NCBI GenBank assembly: GCA_016215105.1
Contig: JACRLJ010000001.1
Location: 33,461-97,460 of the forward strand
Direction: 5' to 3'
DNA from: Candidatus Hydrogenedentota bacterium
Lineage (GTDB): Bacteria; Hydrogenedentota; Hydrogenedentia; Hydrogenedentales; SLHB01
DNA length: 64,000 nucleotides
Below, one piece after another: positions 25,683-32,473 of the stretch; the first letter of the stretch is position 1, and each line of letters starts with the position of its first letter. Under the pieces are notes generated by a model. It was not told where the DNA came from. It searched no databases and was given only the letters and a program-made list of their open reading frames with translations. The position numbers and the translations under genes are program-made.

Positions 25683-26306
25683 TCGGCAAACCGTGAATAC
25701 GCAAGAACTTTGACCGAAATTACTTCGCCAAGCTCGTTTGCGAATGTAGCGTGCAATTGTGGCCGCCAATTTCATCTTGATACGTTTATTTCGGATCCAA
25801 GTCTTCGGGGCTGGTATGGCTAACGGATAGTCCGGCTTTTCCAAAGCCGGATGGGACGCGCATAGGAACTTTTCGGAGCATAAAGACTGAAGGGAGGCTG
25901 TTGTTCGGGACGTTCCGGTTTTGGAAAAACCGGACTACTTGGAGCGCAAGCCGGTCCATCCGCCGATTTCGACTTGACACGTTTATTTCGGCGCCAAGTC
26001 TACGTGAACTTCAGCAATCTCGAATTTCTTTCTGCCCCACCTCTCTTCGTATCAGTCCCGCATCTTGTCATTCAAGAGACCCTTTGCGAATTCCGGCGAA
26101 TCTAAACGCAAGCGCCCAAACAAAACAGGCGCCGCCGGCAACGCCTTGACAGCCTACATCAATAGTACGATAATTGGATCGGTGGATATTGCGCCTCAGG
26201 AGGGCCACTAGGGTTGCCCCACGGCCGGCGATCATTGCGGTATCGCGGGTCCGAGGGAGTCGGAACAATATTGAAGGTGTGGGCAGAAAAAGCGGGGAAT
26301 ACCAGC
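25683..26306. other. 624-base spacer before the repeat-protein pair
   Basis: No gene was recognised here. It holds the repeat/hairpin element at 25763-26001 and the leader of the first repeat-protein gene. A frame in phase with that gene opens at a TTG (26214), but the conserved start is the ATG at 26307. Confidence 0.6.
25763..26001. repeat. Direct-repeat pair flanking two opposed hairpins
   Basis: A 42-nt unit at 25763-25804 recurs at 25960-26001 with six mismatches; both contain CGTTTATTTCGG and CCAAGTCT. Between them lie two perfect 9-bp hairpins with 3-base loops, 25831-25851 (TCCGGCTTT stem) and 25914-25934 (TCCGGTTTT stem), each joined to TAGTCCGG or its complement so that they face each other. 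The whole looks like a short non-coding repeat element. Confidence 0.65.
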
Positions 26307-28970
26307 ATGAGAAGCTTCGATGAGCACAAGGATCCTGTTCGTGACTGTATCGACAAGGCGCGTCAAGCCGCAAAGGAATCACCCGATACCGCGCGCGCGC
26401 TGATGGTCGATGCCGAAGCCACGGCTACGGCGAAGGGCATTGCTACAGATTTGGTGTCCTGCGCGGAAGGCTGGAAGGAAGCGCTGGGCGACAACGAGAG
26501 AGCGTGCGCCTGTCTTGAAAAGGCCGAGGCCTCGGCTGACGAGTACGCGCCTGTCATGGTACTCTGCGCCGAAGGCTGGAGAAACGTCGTAGATGATCGA
26601 GGCAGGTCTCGGGCCTGCCTGGAGAGGGCCGAAACGGTGGCAAGGAGGGACGCACGGGGGCTGATAGCCTGCGCGGACGCCTGGAAAAACATCTTCGCTG
26701 ACACTGAGAAGTCGCGCGCTTGTCTCGACAAGGCCGATTCACTCGCGAGGAAGAGCAGCATCGTACTCGAGCTCACGATCTGTTCCAAAGACTTGATCAT
26801 TCGATTGGGCGACCGCGAGCGATCCCGAGACTATCTCGCCAGGGCTACGGCGTTGTCGGTGGCCAAGAATAGCGCAATGGAATTGGCGTGGTGCGCGAAA
26901 GACTGGAGCGAGTCGCTCAATGACGGTGAACAAGCTCGCGAGTGCATGGACAAAGCCTTGGCCCTGGCCAAAGACGATGCAGAGAACCTTGCGTGGTGCG
27001 CTGCTTCGGTCCGGAGCGCACTCGGTGACGCTGACCGCGCCCGCGCCTGCCTAATTGAAGCCGAATCCCTGGCAAAGAACGATGCACAGCCTCTAGCGGC
27101 TTGCGCTACTCAATGGATGGACGTGTTCGATGAACCGGAGCGGGCCCGTGCGTGCCTTGAGAAGGCCGAGGCCAACGCCGGGAGTAGCGTGACGGATCTA
27201 CTGCGCTGCGCAGAAGGCTGGATGAATCCATTCGACGAAAGTGAAAAAGCCCGCGCTTGCCTGGAAACGGCGGAGGCGCTGCCTACGAATTCTACATCGG
27301 ACCTCGTGCAATGCGCGGACGATTGGATGGAATTGTTTGACGAACGCGAGAAGGCTCGTAAGTGTCTGGAAAAAGCTGAGGCGTTGGCCGTGGCAGCGAG
27401 CGATGTGTGGGGTTTTGACTGGTGTGCGACAAGCTGGAAGCGTCAGCTCCACGACGATAATAAAGCGCGTGCTTGCTTAGACAAAGCCGTGTCGGTTTCG
27501 TTGGCCAAGAACTGTCCGTCGGATCTTGTAACCTGCGCCAGGAACTTCGCTTTACTGTTCAAAGATATGAGAAGAGCCCGCGAATTGTTGGAGAATGCCG
27601 AGACCGTCGCAGGGTCCGACGCCAACGGTTTGGCGCGGTGCGCCGAGGGTTGGGAAAACGTGTTGGAAGAGAGTGAAAGAGCGCGCGCCTGTCTGGGTAA
27701 GGCCCGAGTGGTGGCCGCAACAGGAGACAATGGTCTGACGCGGTGTGCCGACCTCTGGGTGGAATTATTCGGAGACCGTGATGAAGCCCGTGCCTGCCTG
27801 AAGAAGGCTGGGGCGGGTACCAGGCAAGACGTATGGAGTCTCGTCGATTGTGGCTATCACTGGCAGAAATCCCTCGAAGACGCAGACGGCGCCCGAGCCT
27901 GCCTGAAGAAGGCCCAGGCCAAAGCAAAAGCCGCATGGGAGCTGACCTTGTGCGCCGAGGAATGGAAGATTGGGTTCGGTGACCTTGACAGCGCCCGTGT
28001 GTGTTTGGAGAAGGGCGAGGCCGCGGCGAAGAACGACGCCTCTTCTCTTCTGGATTGCGCTGAACATTGGAATAGGTTGCTCGGCAACCGTGAGAGAGCC
28101 CGTACCTGTCTAGGCAAAGCCGAGGAAGTGGCCAAAAACGACGCGTCGCGGCTGGCGGCCTGCGCCCGAGGATGGAAGAACCTTTTCGACGACCGCGAGA
28201 GGGCGCGTGCTTGCCTAAGCAAGGCTGAGTTGGCGGCAAAGGATGACGCATCGCAGTTGGTTGCTTGCGCTAGAGGATGGAAAGAATTGTTCGACGATGA
28301 TGAAAGGGCCCGCACCCTTTTGTCCGGCGCCGAAGCGGCAACTAAAGTCGGCGCCCGAGCGCTGGTGGCATGTGCGTCGGCTTGGGAGATGCTATTCCAC
28401 GACGATGAAAGAGCGAGTGCATGCCTGGACAGAGCCGAAGTGGTTACGGACGATGCGGGGCAGTTTCTGTGGTGCGCCAGCATCATGATATCCAGTCGCG
28501 ACAACTATGAGCGCGCACGCGTCTTTCTAATCAAAGCGGAGGCAGTAGCCAAGGAGGCGCCTGACCTGATTCGGTGCGCCGATCGGTGGATGGGGCCACC
28601 GCTCAATGACAATGACGCCGCCCGGGCCTGCTTACGCAAGGCCGAAACCATGGCCTGCGAAACGGCGGAGTTGGATGAATGCGCCAGCCTTTGGAAGAAA
28701 CTCGGAGACAATGCCAAGGCTCGCACGTGCCGGTGGCGAGCGCGAAAAGGCGACGTAGCGTTCATCGCCATCTGGATCGGATTCTTTCTCCTCTTTGCGT
28801 GGGGGGCTCAGCACGTGGCCGGACTTATCACGCACGCATTGGGGCGTCCGTGGGTCTACTGGGTTTGTACGGTCGTCGCAATACCGGTCTCGCTGGTACT
28901 GGGCCGCCTCTGCACGCGATGGGTGATAACGCGGATTCCAAAGAGCATCAAAACGCGGTACATGAAGTGA
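26307..28970 (+). CDS. Cys/Trp-rich TPR-like solenoid protein with C-terminal membrane anchor (paralog A)
   Basis: The 887-residue protein is built, after a ~58-residue cap (MRSFDEHKDPVRDCIDKARQ start), from about 21 tandem units, mostly 35 residues (34-37). A typical unit reads DASQLVACARGWKELFDDRE then RARACLSKAELAAKD. It resembles a TPR helix pair but has Cys-Ala at positions 7-8, Trp at 11, Asp-Asp near 16-17 and a second Cys near 24. The last ~75 residues hold two hydrophobic stretches (FIAIWIGFFLLFAWGAQHVA, WVYWVCTVVAIPVSLVLGRL) and a basic tail, so it is probably tail-anchored with the solenoid in the cytoplasm. Function is unknown. The start matches paralog B, including AAGCGGGGAAT upstream. 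Confidence 0.8.
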   Translation: MRSFDEHKDPVRDCIDKARQAAKESPDTARALMVDAEATATAKGIATDLVSCAEGWKEALGDNERACACLEKAEASADEYAPVMVLCAEGWRNVVDDRGRSRACLERAETVARRDARGLIACADAWKNIFADTEKSRACLDKADSLARKSSIVLELTICSKDLIIRLGDRERSRDYLARATALSVAKNSAMELAWCAKDWSESLNDGEQARECMDKALALAKDDAENLAWCAASVRSALGDADRARACLIEAESLAKNDAQPLAACATQWMDVFDEPERARACLEKAEANAGSSVTDLLRCAEGWMNPFDESEKARACLETAEALPTNSTSDLVQCADDWMELFDEREKARKCLEKAEALAVAASDVWGFDWCATSWKRQLHDDNKARACLDKAVSVSLAKNCPSDLVTCARNFALLFKDMRRARELLENAETVAGSDANGLARCAEGWENVLEESERARACLGKARVVAATGDNGLTRCADLWVELFGDRDEARACLKKAGAGTRQDVWSLVDCGYHWQKSLEDADGARACLKKAQAKAKAAWELTLCAEEWKIGFGDLDSARVCLEKGEAAAKNDASSLLDCAEHWNRLLGNRERARTCLGKAEEVAKNDASRLAACARGWKNLFDDRERARACLSKAELAAKDDASQLVACARGWKELFDDDERARTLLSGAEAATKVGARALVACASAWEMLFHDDERASACLDRAEVVTDDAGQFLWCASIMISSRDNYERARVFLIKAEAVAKEAPDLIRCADRWMGPPLNDNDAARACLRKAETMACETAELDECASLWKKLGDNAKARTCRWRARKGDVAFIAIWIGFFLLFAWGAQHVAGLITHALGRPWVYWVCTVVAIPVSLVLGRLCTRWVITRIPKSIKTRYMK

Positions 28971-29049
28971 TAAGGAATCACGAACGGCGTGATACGGGCG
29001 CAGTCGGCCAGGGCTTCTGGTGTAGGCAGATGAAGCGGGGAATTCGGAA

Positions 29050-31374
29050 ATGAGAAACTTCCGTGAGCGCAAGAATCCTGTACACGACTGCATCGAGAAG
29101 GCGCGGCAAGCCGCAAAGGAATCGCCAGAAACGGCGCGCGCGCTCTTGGGTAAAGCCGAGATCAAGGCTTGGGCGAGGGGTTCCGCTGCCGATCTGGTGG
29201 CCTGCGCAGACGCCTGGAACGAAGCCCTGGACGACCTAAAGAACGCGCGCGACTGTCTGGACGGAGCCGAGCTAGCGGCTAAGGCGAGTCCTCTTGGTCT
29301 GGTGTGCTGCGCGGACGCTTGGAAGCGCCTGTTCGACGACGTTGGAGGAATTTGGACGTGCCTGGACAAGGCTGAGGCCAGCGCCAAGGCCACGAATCGC
29401 GCGTACGATCTGGCGTGTGTCGCCGAGCGTTTAGAGCGCCTCGTCGCCAGCCGCGAAAGATCTCTCGCCTGCCTGAACGACGCTACTGCGCTGGCGACGG
29501 CTACGAGCGACATGATGGGCCTGGGGAAGTGCGCGCGAGTTTGGAAGGACTTGTTCGACGATATTGAGCTAGGGCGGGTTTGCCTGGAAAAGGCCGTGAC
29601 GGCGGCCAAGAGTGACGCAAGGATGCTGACATATTGCGCGTTCGACCTAAAGGAAGCGCTTGGCGACGCCGAGCGCGCCCGCGCCTGCCTGAACGAAGCG
29701 GAATCACTGGCGAAAGGGGACGCGCTGCTGCTTACGATGTGCGCCGAAGGTTGGGTGTATCTGTTGGGTGACGTTCCAAGAGCCCGAGCGTGCCTGGAAA
29801 AGGCCGAGGCCAGCGCCAAGGACCAGATCGGCCATGTGCAATTTGTGTGGCGCACTGAAGGCCGGACGTATCTACTGAATGACCGCGATGGCTCCAGCGC
29901 CTACTGGGACAGGGCCGAGATCGTAATCAGGAATGAGTCGGTGGACCTCGCGCAGTGCGCGGACGCTTGGGTAAACCTGCTCGATGACCGCGAGAAAGCC
30001 CGCATATGCTTGGACAAAGCTGAGACGGCGGCGGTGGCCGGCGATGATACTGAAGGCTTGGTGAGTTGCGCCGAGGTCTGGAAGAGTCAGCTTGGTGACA
30101 CGGCGAAAGCCCGCGCCTGCCTCGACAAAACCATGGCAATGTCTGTGGCCGGGGGCCATGCGGCGGATGTTGTGATCTGCGCCGAAAACTGGGACCGGTT
30201 GTTTGGTGATATTGAGAAGGCGCGCGAATGCTTAGTCACGGCGGAAACCCTCGGTGAGTCTGAGGCATTCGGTCTAGTGCGATGCGCCGACGCTTGGGCG
30301 GAAGTCATGGAAGACGGTGGAAGAGCGCGTGCGTGTTTGGAAAGGGCCGAAGTCGCGGCACATACCGCCGACGCTCTTGTGCGGTGTCTTGACCGCTGGG
30401 TGAGACTGTTTAACGACGTCGACAAGGCTCGTGCCTGCCTGGAGAAAGCGGAGGCCATGGCCGAGCACGATGCGAGCCACTTAATGGCGTGCGCCGAACG
30501 CTGGAAGGTTACGCTCCGTGACGAGATTAGGGCCCGCGCCTGCCTGGCGAAGGCGGAGACGGCGGCCAAGGATAACGCCTCGCAATTGGTTGAATGCGCC
30601 GGACACCGGCTGGACATGTTCGGCGACAGCGACGAAGCTCGCGCCCGCCTGGTCGAAGCCGAAGCGGCGGCAAAGGATGACGCGCGAGGCCTCGTGGAGT
30701 GCGCCAGCGGCTGGAAGAGGCAATTCGGAGACGATGAGAGAGCCCGCGCGTGCCTAACCAATGCCGAGGCGCTGGCCAAGGACCACGCGCTGCGATTAGC
30801 GGCCTGCGCCCAAGGTTGGATCGAAACCTTCAACGACGCCGAACGGGCCAGTGCGATTCTGACCAAGGCCGAGATAGCGGCAAAGGATGACGCGTCGCAG
30901 CTAGTGGCCTGCGCCACAGAGTGGAAGGAAATGTTCAACGATGTTGAGCGAGCCAATGCGATTCTGAGCAAGGCTGAGTCTGTGGCGAAGGATGACGCGT
31001 CCCAGCTTGTGGCCTGCGCCCATGGTTGGAAGGAGTTGTTCAATGAAGGAGATCGAGCCCGCGCGCTCTTGATAAGGGCTGAGGCCGTAGCGACGGTTGG
31101 CGCTATGCCACTGGTGAAATGCGCATACGCCTGGAAGTCTCTGTTCGACGACCGTGAACGGGTCCGTGTCTGCCAGGACCGGGCTGACGCGGCGGTCTCG
31201 GATAGCGCGAACGACCTTTTGTGGGCCGCCAACTACATGAGGCTGTTTTTCCATGACCGCGAGAGGGCGCGCGCTTTTCTACGCAAGGCCGAAGCAATTG
31301 CCCACGAGACGGAGGATCTGGATGAGTGCGCCCGCCAACGGGACATACTCGGAGACGATGGTAAGACCTGCTAG
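29050..31374 (+). CDS. Cys/Trp-rich TPR-like solenoid protein (paralog B), anchor lost
   Basis: The 774-residue tandem paralog of the preceding gene begins MRNFRERKNPVHDCIEKARQ and has about 20 of the same 35-residue units, such as DASQLVACATEWKEMFNDVE then RANAILSKAE. The leader repeats AAGCGGGGAAT found before paralog A. Translation stops at a TAG just where paralog A enters its anchor; beyond the stop the same frame still reads RQWRERKGG, matching RWRARKGD of A. It therefore looks like a soluble, nonsense-truncated copy. Partner or ligand is unknown. The 79-base gap suggests co-transcription with paralog A. Confidence 0.8.
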   Translation: MRNFRERKNPVHDCIEKARQAAKESPETARALLGKAEIKAWARGSAADLVACADAWNEALDDLKNARDCLDGAELAAKASPLGLVCCADAWKRLFDDVGGIWTCLDKAEASAKATNRAYDLACVAERLERLVASRERSLACLNDATALATATSDMMGLGKCARVWKDLFDDIELGRVCLEKAVTAAKSDARMLTYCAFDLKEALGDAERARACLNEAESLAKGDALLLTMCAEGWVYLLGDVPRARACLEKAEASAKDQIGHVQFVWRTEGRTYLLNDRDGSSAYWDRAEIVIRNESVDLAQCADAWVNLLDDREKARICLDKAETAAVAGDDTEGLVSCAEVWKSQLGDTAKARACLDKTMAMSVAGGHAADVVICAENWDRLFGDIEKARECLVTAETLGESEAFGLVRCADAWAEVMEDGGRARACLERAEVAAHTADALVRCLDRWVRLFNDVDKARACLEKAEAMAEHDASHLMACAERWKVTLRDEIRARACLAKAETAAKDNASQLVECAGHRLDMFGDSDEARARLVEAEAAAKDDARGLVECASGWKRQFGDDERARACLTNAEALAKDHALRLAACAQGWIETFNDAERASAILTKAEIAAKDDASQLVACATEWKEMFNDVERANAILSKAESVAKDDASQLVACAHGWKELFNEGDRARALLIRAEAVATVGAMPLVKCAYAWKSLFDDRERVRVCQDRADAAVSDSANDLLWAANYMRLFFHDRERARAFLRKAEAIAHETEDLDECARQRDILGDDGKTC

Positions 31375-32257
31375 CGCCAGTGGCGGGAGCGAAAGGGCGG
31401 ACGCGGCGTTTCCTTCGAATTTGGACCGATAGCTGGCAGCCATGAGCCCCGTTTTGTGTCTTGTTCAACCATGCAAAGAATTATTATTGATAGCGTGTTT
31501 TGTCAACCAAAAGGACCCTCGTTTCGCCAGGTCACCCTTCTCAGTCCCGGCCGACCTTGAACCCAGCCGCCTCCCACCCTCGTCTCGTAAGTCCATTACC
31601 CAGCAATTACTTATCCCATGAATGCCCTTGTTTCGAAAAGCCGCCCAATCCCGCGGTGAGCCGGGGGCCTCTCCCCATCCCCCGCTCGTCTCACCTATGG
31701 CGCCAACTCCGGAGTCCGAATACGCTCAGCCTGCTTTTTCGCGGGGCGCTTTTCCGTGCTCCTGACCGTCACCTTCTTGTTCTTTCTCGCAGAAGTTCGC
31801 ACCGCGGAATCTGAAAGTCGTCTTGCCGCGATCTCTTTTCAGCCGGTCGCCTGTCTTCGTAATTCCTAGATTTCAGATCTGAGATCTGAGATCTGAGATT
31901 TCAAATCTCAAATCCCTTTGGGTTGCGGCCACACCGGGCTATGCAATCTGGGGTTTCCAGACCAAAAACCACCTCGCAAGCCGAAACAACTGCCCATCAT
32001 ATATAGGAGTAGATCGCGAGGTGATCGAGCCAAGGTTTGACCTCCACCGTCATGGGTAGGTCGTGGCGCGCCGGGCAGGCTATCGAATGCGGCGAGGAGG
32101 CCGCATCTACTATAGCGATCCACCGACCGGTTCATTCGCAAGTTGCAGCGGGAGCGAGGGACGGGCCACACCCATGAGTTCTGTCCTAGACGCCCCGACC
32201 GGCGGCTGAGGACAGCCGCCCTCCCGGCCTCACCGCTTACGGAGTTCGCCGGTTTGA
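31375..32257. other. Repeat-rich spacer before the riboflavin operon
   Basis: No gene is supported in this ~880-base stretch. It contains decayed anchor sequence of paralog B just after 31374, a tandem GATCTGA array (31870-31899) joined to a 7-bp palindrome, and a perfect 7-bp hairpin GGCGGCT/AGCCGCC (32201-32220). Codon-like structure is absent from the open frames here. Confidence 0.55.
31870..31915. repeat. Short tandem repeat and palindrome
   Basis: GATCTGA is repeated three times in tandem, then GAGATTT-C-AAATCTC forms a 7-bp inverted repeat. Three to four short units with no unique spacers exclude a CRISPR array. Confidence 0.7.
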
Positions 32258-32287: not shown

Positions 32288-32350
32288 ACCGTTTGAGCGT
32301 CACGGGAGTGGCCGTGGCGGTCAAAATAGTTTTTATCACAAGCGAAGTAA

Positions 32351-32462
32351 GCCTTCGGGGCAGGGTGCGATTCCCGACCGGCGGTAATAGCCCGCGAGCG
32401 CATTTGCGCAGGATCTGGTGAAATTCCAGGGCCGACGGTACAGTCCGGATGAAAGAAGGCGG
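32351..32462 (+). promoter_or_regulatory. FMN riboswitch (RFN element)
   Basis: The aptamer's conserved blocks appear in order: CTTCGGGGCAGGGTGCGATT, CCCGACCGGCGGTAATAGCC, CGCGAGCG, GGATCTGGTGAAATTCCAG, GGCCGACGGTACAGTCCGG and ATGAAAGAAGG. It binds flavin mononucleotide and switches expression of riboflavin genes off. It is followed directly by an intrinsic terminator and ribD. Confidence 0.96.
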
Positions 32463-32473
32463 TGGAGCAGTGT

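What the first reader, a model, noticed from the sequence alone, without database searches (positions are those of the whole stretch)
26307..31374. Tandem pair of giant Cys/Trp solenoid proteins built from a 35-residue TPR-like unit
Two adjacent genes encode 887 and 774 residues, nearly all of it about 21 and 20 copies of one unit, by hand alignment. Each unit keeps Cys-Ala, Trp, Asp-Asp and a second Cys, so each protein carries dozens of cytoplasmic Cys. TPR does not normally conserve Cys. The genes share cap, leader and end, so they arose by duplication. Function is unknown; the repeat may be a scaffold, a redox-sensitive or metal-binding solenoid, or a repeat family with few described members.
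Basis: partly seen in the sequence, partly recalled or inferred. Interest (0 to 1): 0.72.

Follow-up and report, generated by a model that had tools for sequence, protein, structure and literature searches.

The report
Paired Cys/Trp TPR-like scaffold proteins
Two neighbouring, duplicated genes encode long coiled scaffold proteins made almost wholly of a rare variant of the common TPR repeat in which two core positions have become cysteines; it is a real and scarcely catalogued variant, but most likely an ordinary protein-binding scaffold.

Summary
Two adjacent genes (window 26307-28970 and 29050-31374) encode 887 and 774 residues: 21 and 20 units of one 34-37-residue repeat with Cys-Ala-x-x-Trp in the first helix and a second Cys in the second. 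AlphaFold gives a confident helix-pair solenoid (pLDDT 93.5 for six units). In TPR numbering (my mapping) the cysteines sit at positions 7 and 23, published as the most strongly coevolving TPR pair (usually L7-Y23 or R7-D23). The full proteins reach no Pfam or NCBIfam cut-off; 1 of 7 array segments just reaches Pfam TPR_8. No relative was found in 67 other genomes of the phylum, but the Cys/Trp unit occurs in five other genomes: on a Ser/Thr kinase with a response regulator, on a caspase-like protein, behind a membrane anchor, and alone. A relative keeps the Trp with mostly Leu at position 23, and single-Cys units occur. So the Cys look like core-packing residues; a redox or metal role has no direct support. 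Best reading: a divergent-TPR, protein-binding scaffold pair, copy 1 membrane-tethered by a C-terminal hairpin, copy 2 soluble. New variant of a known kind; moderate interest.

The parts
26290..26300 (+). leader AAGCGGGGAAT (possible ribosome-binding region) shared with copy 2
   Evidence: identical 11-mer upstream of both ATGs
26307..28970 (+). copy 1: 887-aa Cys/Trp TPR-like repeat protein
   Evidence: AlphaFold mean pLDDT 84.0, helix pairs along the array
26307..26441 (+). N-terminal cap of copy 1 (residues 1-45), about a half unit
   Evidence: partial HMM hits at residues 12-41; similar to copy 2
26442..28655 (+). 21-unit array of copy 1 (residues 46-783)
28740..28931 (+). C-terminal hydrophobic hairpin of copy 1 (residues about 812-875), two presumed membrane helices with basic flanks on both sides
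   Evidence: hydropathy maxima of 19-residue windows starting at residues 815-817 and 850-852; two long helices, pLDDT about 60; membrane nature and topology are inference (positive-inside rule)
29033..29043 (+). leader AAGCGGGGAAT of copy 2
29050..31374 (+). copy 2: 774-aa Cys/Trp TPR-like repeat protein without the hydrophobic tail
29185..31305 (+). 20-unit array of copy 2 (residues 46-752)
   Evidence: recent unit duplication seen as a 105-bp tandem repeat at 30797-31083

Best explanation
The two genes encode a pair of divergent TPR-like solenoid scaffolds. Each unit is a helix-turn-helix that stacks on the next to give a long curved rod with a groove that would bind partner proteins. The fixed residues (Leu/Trp4, Cys7, Ala8, Trp11, Ala20, Cys23, Leu24, Ala27) build the core; the others vary from unit to unit and are the likely partner contacts. 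Cys7 and Cys23 are an alternative filling of the TPR position pair 7/23 and act mainly as packing residues, not as a catalytic, metal or disulfide site. Copy 1 is tethered to the inner face of a membrane by its C-terminal hairpin and copy 2 is soluble, so together they could hold a partner at the membrane or in the cytoplasm; because related arrays hang on a protein kinase with a response regulator and on a caspase-like domain, the partner is probably part of a signalling or stress/defence pathway. Shown: array, duplication, sequence marks, predicted fold, relatives. Inferred: TPR register, partner binding, membrane topology, signalling role, packing role of the Cys.
For: Six-unit model: 12 regular helices, mean pLDDT 93.5, pTM 0.84. 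Foldseek's best-ranked PDB hits are consensus TPR superhelices, APC/C TPR subunits, MamA and OGT; VIA-align puts designed TPR M4N at Z 11.0, 106 residues aligned, rmsd 3.0. Segment 26442-27077 reaches Pfam TPR_8 (27.0 bits, cut-off 25.7) and segment 29605-30249 comes near TPR_2 and TPR_12 (25.6 of 27; 25.7 of 30.1). Register: Cys-Ala-x-x-Trp falls on L7-G8-x-x-Y11 and the second Cys on 23 if helix B's Ala is A20; the shorter units of L058 and G293 need no insertion. Zhu et al. 2016 (PMC5074805; passages, section 17) give W4 L7 G8 Y11 A20 Y24 A27 P32 as TPR signature and 7-23 as the strongest coevolving pair, commonly R7-D23 or L7-Y23, with 7 facing the neighbouring repeat. Mixed units: of 41 window units 29 have both Cys, 9 Cys7 only (one of these only because its second Cys is shifted by one residue), 1 Cys23 only, 2 neither. 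L089 keeps Trp11 with Leu at 23 in 6 of 9 readable repeats and, read by eye, Leu/Ile at 7. Relatives: L059 kinase + 4 units + biotinyl-like + response regulator, L050 caspase-like + units, L058 9 units alone, L052 3 units, G293 zinc-ribbon-like + hydrophobic segment + units. dN/dS about 0.29.
Against: No partner or conserved neighbourhood is known: 0 of 67 other genomes of the phylum have the array at E 0.001. TM-scores to canonical TPR proteins over the whole segment are 0.3-0.5 with rmsd 5-13, only 3 matches have E 0.001 or better, and VIA ranks designed toroids and VPS35 above TPR proteins with Z in the range (under about 13) that the tool calls unspecific for repeats, so the superhelix may not be a standard TPR groove. 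Conservation of Cys7 in 38 of 41 window units is more than plain packing obviously needs. dS is near saturation, so dN/dS is rough. The signalling context is by analogy with two relatives only.
Confidence: 0.6

Rival explanations
1. Redox-sensitive solenoid: Cys7 and Cys23 of each unit can form a disulfide or persulfide and change the curvature of the rod, releasing or binding a partner.
For: The two Cys occupy the strongest coevolving (hence probably touching) TPR pair (PMC5074805); both are present in 29 of 41 window units in fixed register and, in the HMM alignment where both columns read, in 31 of 37 window and 22 of 25 relatives' units. Helical repeats with inter-repeat disulfides exist (HcpB/HcpC; PMC3851747 and PMC2581425, passages).
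Against: The partners do not stand or fall together (9 window units with only Cys7, 1 with only Cys23; no association shown). A relative has mostly Leu at position 23. The proteins have no strongly hydrophobic N-terminus, and the L059 kinase fusion is presumably cytoplasmic, where disulfides are rare; the known disulfides of Hcp tie the end of one repeat to the start of the next in a protein with a signal peptide.
Confidence: 0.13
2. Metal-binding solenoid: the Cys of neighbouring units coordinate zinc or another soft metal, for stability or storage.
For: 82 Cys in the two proteins; one L059 unit has His at 23.
Against: Two Cys per unit without conserved His/Asp partners do not by themselves make a usual site; single-Cys units occur; no metal-handling gene among the 7 of 9 nearby proteins that have a Pfam match (GHMP kinase, M23 peptidase, GH32, three riboflavin genes, PRiA4_ORF3).
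Confidence: 0.05
3. Part of a biological-conflict (defence or programmed-death) sensor system, the arrays being the ligand sensor.
For: Related arrays sit behind a kinase whose best PADLOC match is MAD6 (2.7e-51, kinase part), on a contig with a fragment matching mad8 (4.3e-8) and HerA (2.2e-5), and behind a domain matching NCBIfam caspase_w_EACC1 at 2.5e-9; Pfam TPR-S, weak, 18.5 bits. TPR sensors in such systems are described in PMC7159879, PMC8195603 and PMC10907252 (passages).
Against: The caspase, MAD6 (NCBIfam) and TPR-S matches lie below curated cut-offs or rest on the common kinase fold. The window pair has no recognised effector, NTPase or protease domain, PADLOC gives at best E 0.023 for it, and none of the 7 nearby proteins with a Pfam match is a defence gene.
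Confidence: 0.18
4. Neutral expansion: a lineage-specific repeat protein kept by unit duplication with little specific function.
For: Found in 1 of 68 genomes of the phylum, the own one; recent unit duplication; copy 2 has three units without Cys7, two of them (residues 262 and 720) with none of Cys7, Trp11 and Cys23.
Against: Both frames are open over 20 units and dN/dS is about 0.29.
Confidence: 0.08

Closest known systems
Tetratricopeptide repeat (TPR), consensus TPR (CTPR)
   Same: Tandem 34-37-residue helix-turn-helix units; Ala at 8, 20 and 27; aromatic at 11; predicted helix-pair solenoid; best-ranked Foldseek matches are TPR proteins; 1 of 7 window segments reaches Pfam TPR_8.
   Different: Cys at 7 and 23, Trp at 11, no Pro at 32, one extra residue in most window units; no Pfam TPR family at E 1 or better for the full proteins; overall superhelix fits canonical TPR poorly (TM 0.3-0.5).
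Sel1-like repeats / Helicobacter cysteine-rich proteins HcpB, HcpC
   Same: TPR-like solenoid with regularly placed Cys.
   Different: [quoted passage not shown] units are usually 36-38 residues; HcpC has a signal peptide (PMC3851747 passages). Here both Cys are within helices A and B, there is no strongly hydrophobic N-terminus, and Sel1 matches only 1 of 10 array segments at E 0.09.
CagY repeat region (Helicobacter pylori)
   Same: Long helical repeat array with conserved Cys and flanking membrane segments (PMC2581425 passages).
   Different: 38-39-residue A motif, part of a secretion system; Cys needed for multimerisation of isolated motifs in most mutants. No sequence comparison was made here.
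Array-bearing proteins L059 (kinase) and L050 (caspase-like)
   Same: The same Cys7-Trp11-Cys23 unit; profile A4, built without them, gives E 1.8e-42 and 6e-65.
   Different: They carry other domains and about 4-7 units; the window proteins are nearly all array.

Membership tests
TPR | tandem helix-turn-helix units of 34 residues | tested here: met
   units of 34-37 residues, mostly 35; helices H3-17/H20-34 and so on in the model; units of L058 and G293 have a turn shorter by one residue
TPR | signature residues W4 L7 G8 Y11 A20 Y24 A27 P32 | tested here: inconclusive
   Ala8 35, Ala20 30, Leu24 35 and Ala27 36 of the 38 units scored (printed before that script stopped with an error); but L7 is Cys, Y11 is Trp, and P32 is absent
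TPR | match to a Pfam TPR model at its gathering score | tested here: inconclusive
   full proteins: no TPR_n family at E 1 or better. Seven window segments: TPR_8 reached by 26442-27077 (27.0 bits, cut-off 25.7, no single stretch passing); TPR_2 25.6 of 27 and TPR_12 25.7 of 30.1 in 29605-30249; the rest lower or none. The same scan gave SET_assoc above its cut-off on an L059 segment, so a lone segment match is weak evidence
TPR | right-handed TPR superhelix | tested here: inconclusive
   Foldseek top hits are TPR but TM 0.3-0.5; VIA Z 11.0 to designed TPR M4N, rmsd 3.0
TPR-S (PF20308) | match at gathering score | tested here: not met
   15.3 bits for copy 1 and 18.5 bits for a segment, against 27.6
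Sel1-like / Hcp | match to the Sel1 model | tested here: not met
   absent for full proteins at E 1; E 0.092 in 1 of 10 segments
Sel1-like / Hcp | inter-repeat disulfides in an exported protein | not testable with these tools
   no strongly hydrophobic N-terminus; disulfides cannot be tested
Redox or metal protein | Cys pair in bonding geometry | not testable with these tools
   model coordinates are not returned

The most novel reading that the evidence does not exclude
The 7/23 Cys pairs, one per repeat along the interior of a 20-unit rod and each near a Trp, form a ladder of thiols that is oxidised, persulfidated or metallated step by step and so changes the shape of the scaffold: a redox-tuned spring that links the state of the cell to a membrane-bound and a soluble scaffold.
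Probability: 0.06. Interest if true: 0.75.

Novelty: new variant of a known kind. Interest (0 to 1): 0.38.

Why it matters
It shows that the most strongly coupled pair of positions in the TPR fold can be held by Cys-Cys across a 20-unit natural array and in distant bacteria. That gives a natural test of TPR packing rules, a repeat that current family models largely miss, and a marker for finding more kinase- and caspase-linked repeat proteins.

Tried and rejected
Annotated family: for the full proteins Pfam, NCBIfam, PHROGs and PADLOC give nothing above curated cut-offs or, where none exist, nothing better than E 0.023. ARM_TT21_N at 28.1 bits (E 2.1e-6, cut-off 40) and alpha-SNAP at E 0.068 were taken as generic helical-repeat resemblance. 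The profile search of PDB sequences hits designed helical proteins (7upp, E 2.7e-7), again taken as generic.

Mobile or viral origin: tblastn of P0001 against 72,556 plasmid and 50,697 phage records, no match at E 0.01. Viral contigs: a peptide-pattern scan gave 46 stretches and no relative; the DNA pattern gave 2 and 5 contigs, none of the 7 with a match to profile A8.

Of 12 genome contigs with the DNA pattern, 4 are real by profile (L050, L052, L058, L059); 8 were dropped as chance matches, with no A8 match. An earlier P0001 peptide scan of the same collection found 6 stretches and no relative.

G042 (L005, E 8.7e-5 with P0001) is another repeat without the Cys/Trp marks and was dropped. 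G627 (L088, 38.7 bits) lacks the helix-A Cys on reading and was dropped. G072 and its phylum (24 of 77 genomes) have a TPR-like array with Val/Leu/Ile at position 23 in the three proteins read (L022, L028, L030), on a TrmB-type methyltransferase in the one checked by Pfam (L022); a relative of the fold, not of the Cys type.

Absence counts have limits: only part of the first-look candidates was scored in many genomes, and the lone genome-contig pattern scan needed TGC as its first Cys codon, so AT-rich members are under-sampled (the G293 copies, with TGT, would be missed).

Hydrophobic tail of copy 1: no confident relative in 99 other genomes; three weak hits at E 0.002-0.007, two of them with a stop inside.

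Literature: searches for TPR with conserved, buried or rich Cys or Trp listed no paper on it; one search listed 3, one used for TPR numbering; one search listed Sel1/Hcp/CagY papers; one search listed two papers that I did not open. Nothing outside that library was searched.

Structure library: a family that does not appear in the VIA list is not excluded.

On rechecking I ran and found that one segment reaches Pfam TPR_8; an earlier statement of mine that no TPR model reaches its cut-off was withdrawn.
Full report
What is there. Two co-oriented ORFs separated by 79 bases (window 26307-28970 and 29050-31374) encode 887 and 774 residues. An iterated HMM finds 21 and 20 full repeat units; each protein starts with a half-unit cap of about 45 residues and ends in a partial unit. 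The consensus is roughly A-x-x-L-V-x-C-A-x-x-W-K-x-L-F-D-D-x-E-R-A-R-A-C-L-x-K-A-E-x-x-A. Over all 41 units in a fixed register Cys7 is kept in 38, Ala8 in 37, Trp11 in 32, Cys23 in 30 (one more has it one residue later) and both Cys in 29 (numbering as below). Unit spacing is mostly 35 with some 34 and 37. The DNA pattern for the marks occurs 12 times in the window and on average 0.00 times in 100 shuffles.

How the pair arose. The caps are alike, an 11-base leader is identical, and unit k+1 of copy 1 corresponds to unit k of copy 2: mean 15.4 identities of 32 against 12.85 (sd 0.40) for random pairings, 0 of 20,000 permutations as high. So a whole array was duplicated and one unit was gained or lost. 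Protein identity is 49% over 770 aligned codons and dN/dS about 0.29, with dS 1.4 near saturation. A 105-bp tandem repeat at 30797-31083 shows later unit duplication in copy 2. Copy 1 continues into two hydrophobic segments (19-residue Kyte-Doolittle maxima starting near residues 816 and 850) with Arg/Lys-rich flanks on both sides; by the positive-inside rule (inference) the array is cytoplasmic. Copy 2 stops where that tail would begin.

Fold. A six-unit piece with a ten-row alignment folds at mean pLDDT 93.5 into 12 regular helices. The full 887 residues, with a two-row alignment, give helix pairs along the array at mean pLDDT 84.0, with the tail near 60. Foldseek's best-ranked PDB chains are consensus TPRs and TPR proteins, but TM-scores are 0.3-0.5 and rmsd 5-13 over the full segment. 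VIA-align gives designed TPR M4N Z 11.0 over 106 residues at 3.0 A, below designed toroids and VPS35; the tool warns that such Z values are unspecific for repeats. By sequence, the full proteins match no Pfam TPR family at E 1; of seven segments of the arrays, one reaches TPR_8 (27.0 bits, cut-off 25.7) and another comes near TPR_2 and TPR_12. So the unit is a divergent TPR while the overall twist is uncertain.

Register. With the helix-B Ala set as TPR A20, the first Cys falls on position 7 (usually Leu), the next Ala on 8 (usually Gly/Ala), Trp on 11 (usually Tyr), the second Cys on 23 and Leu/Met on 24; the shorter units of L058 and G293 need no gap. Zhu et al. 2016 (PMC5074805; passages, section 17) report that positions 7 and 23 are the strongest coevolving pair in TPRs, most often R7-D23 or L7-Y23, and that 7 faces the neighbouring repeat. 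The Cys pair is thus a further solution for a known structural pair. This mapping is mine and was not checked on coordinates.

Relatives. In the own genome only this pair is found. Profile A2 finds nothing at E 0.001 in the other 67 genomes of the phylum. Among 386 genomes (the phylum's own and others across the domain), 3 match at E 1e-4: the own one, G293 and G072. G293 carries the same unit (SSDWISCAKEWKKLNDDKKAKECMLKAE) behind a weakly matched zinc ribbon (19 bits, below cut-off) and a hydrophobic segment; 1 of 4 genomes of its phylum has it. A DNA pattern in the genome collection gave 12 contigs, 4 true by profile: L058 (Nitrospiraceae MAG, 9 units, 362 aa), L052 (Planctomycetota MAG, 3 units), L050 (uncultured bacterium) and L059 (MAG labelled Mollicutes; a misbinned contig is possible). 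Profile A8 at E 1e-8 then found 2 of 343, 1 of 245, 1 of 345 and 2 of 288 genomes in the phyla of L052, L059, L058 and L050; each count includes the starting genome, and the two extra genomes (G627, G1410) lack the helix-A Cys. So beyond the starting genomes no further Cys-type member was found.

Architectures. L059 joins zinc ribbons, a protein kinase domain (Pfam 1.6e-42), 4 units, a biotinyl-like domain and a response regulator; the kinase part's best PADLOC match is MAD6, and a fragment on the same contig matches mad8/HerA ATPases. L050 has an N-terminal domain that matches NCBIfam 'caspase, EACC1-associated type' at 2.5e-9, below its cut-off, and no Pfam family, then about 7 units. This is the only evidence for a signalling or conflict context, and it is by analogy, as the window pair has no such domain. 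TPR sensors in such systems are described in PMC7159879, PMC8195603 and PMC10907252 (passages only).

What the Cys do. If the two Cys were an obligate disulfide or metal site they should be lost together. They are not: 9 of 41 window units have Cys7 only (8 if the shifted unit is counted as having both) and 1 Cys23 only. In the HMM alignment both columns could be read in 37 of the 41 window units, with both Cys in 31, and in 25 relatives' units, with both in 22; no association can be shown. These counts lean towards Cys: the HMM leaves out window units without Cys7, and four of the five relatives' loci were fetched by a pattern that asks for the Cys in at least one unit. L089 (G1410), found by profile, keeps Trp11 with Leu at 23 in 6 of the 9 repeats readable there, and one Cys; by eye its position 7 is Leu or Ile. 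The unit also seems to occur on both sides of the membrane (G293 after its hydrophobic segment, L059 in a kinase; inference). Packing is the simplest reading. Against it stands the near-invariance of Cys7 in the window, which packing alone does not explain.

Known or new. No curated cut-off is reached by the full proteins, PHROGs and PADLOC give nothing better than E 0.023, and the literature searches named under Tried and rejected found no description. The closest known solenoids with regular Cys, Hcp and CagY, differ in Cys placement and in being exported or secretion-linked. I rate it a new variant of the TPR kind: real, tidy and testable, but with an ordinary most-likely function.

Noticed in passing
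window 32347-32464: FMN riboswitch (Rfam RF00050, 112.1 bits) ahead of a riboflavin cluster: RibD, lumazine-binding riboflavin synthase and DHBP synthase.
   Followed up: partly
L022, L028-L046 (G072 phylum): A TPR-like array with a helix of the kind WA[KR]xLYxKAE; 24 of 77 genomes of that phylum match profile A4. In the one protein checked with Pfam the array is fused to a TrmB-type methyltransferase domain.
   Followed up: partly
L005 (G042): Array of near-identical units of about 33 residues (VAANQVNEDIIGIATEWLQNFPDHPQAY...) after a region that, by eye, could be part of an NTPase; a candidate sensor array in the same order.
   Followed up: no
L025 8739-9203 (G293): A small protein with a weak RadC-like JAB match (17.3 bits, below cut-off) lies directly downstream of the Cys/Trp array gene; a Cas9-like ORF is on the same contig (97-1680, by eye).
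   Followed up: no
window 31868-31908: Short tandem AGATCTG/AGATTTC repeat between copy 2 and the riboflavin cluster.
   Followed up: no
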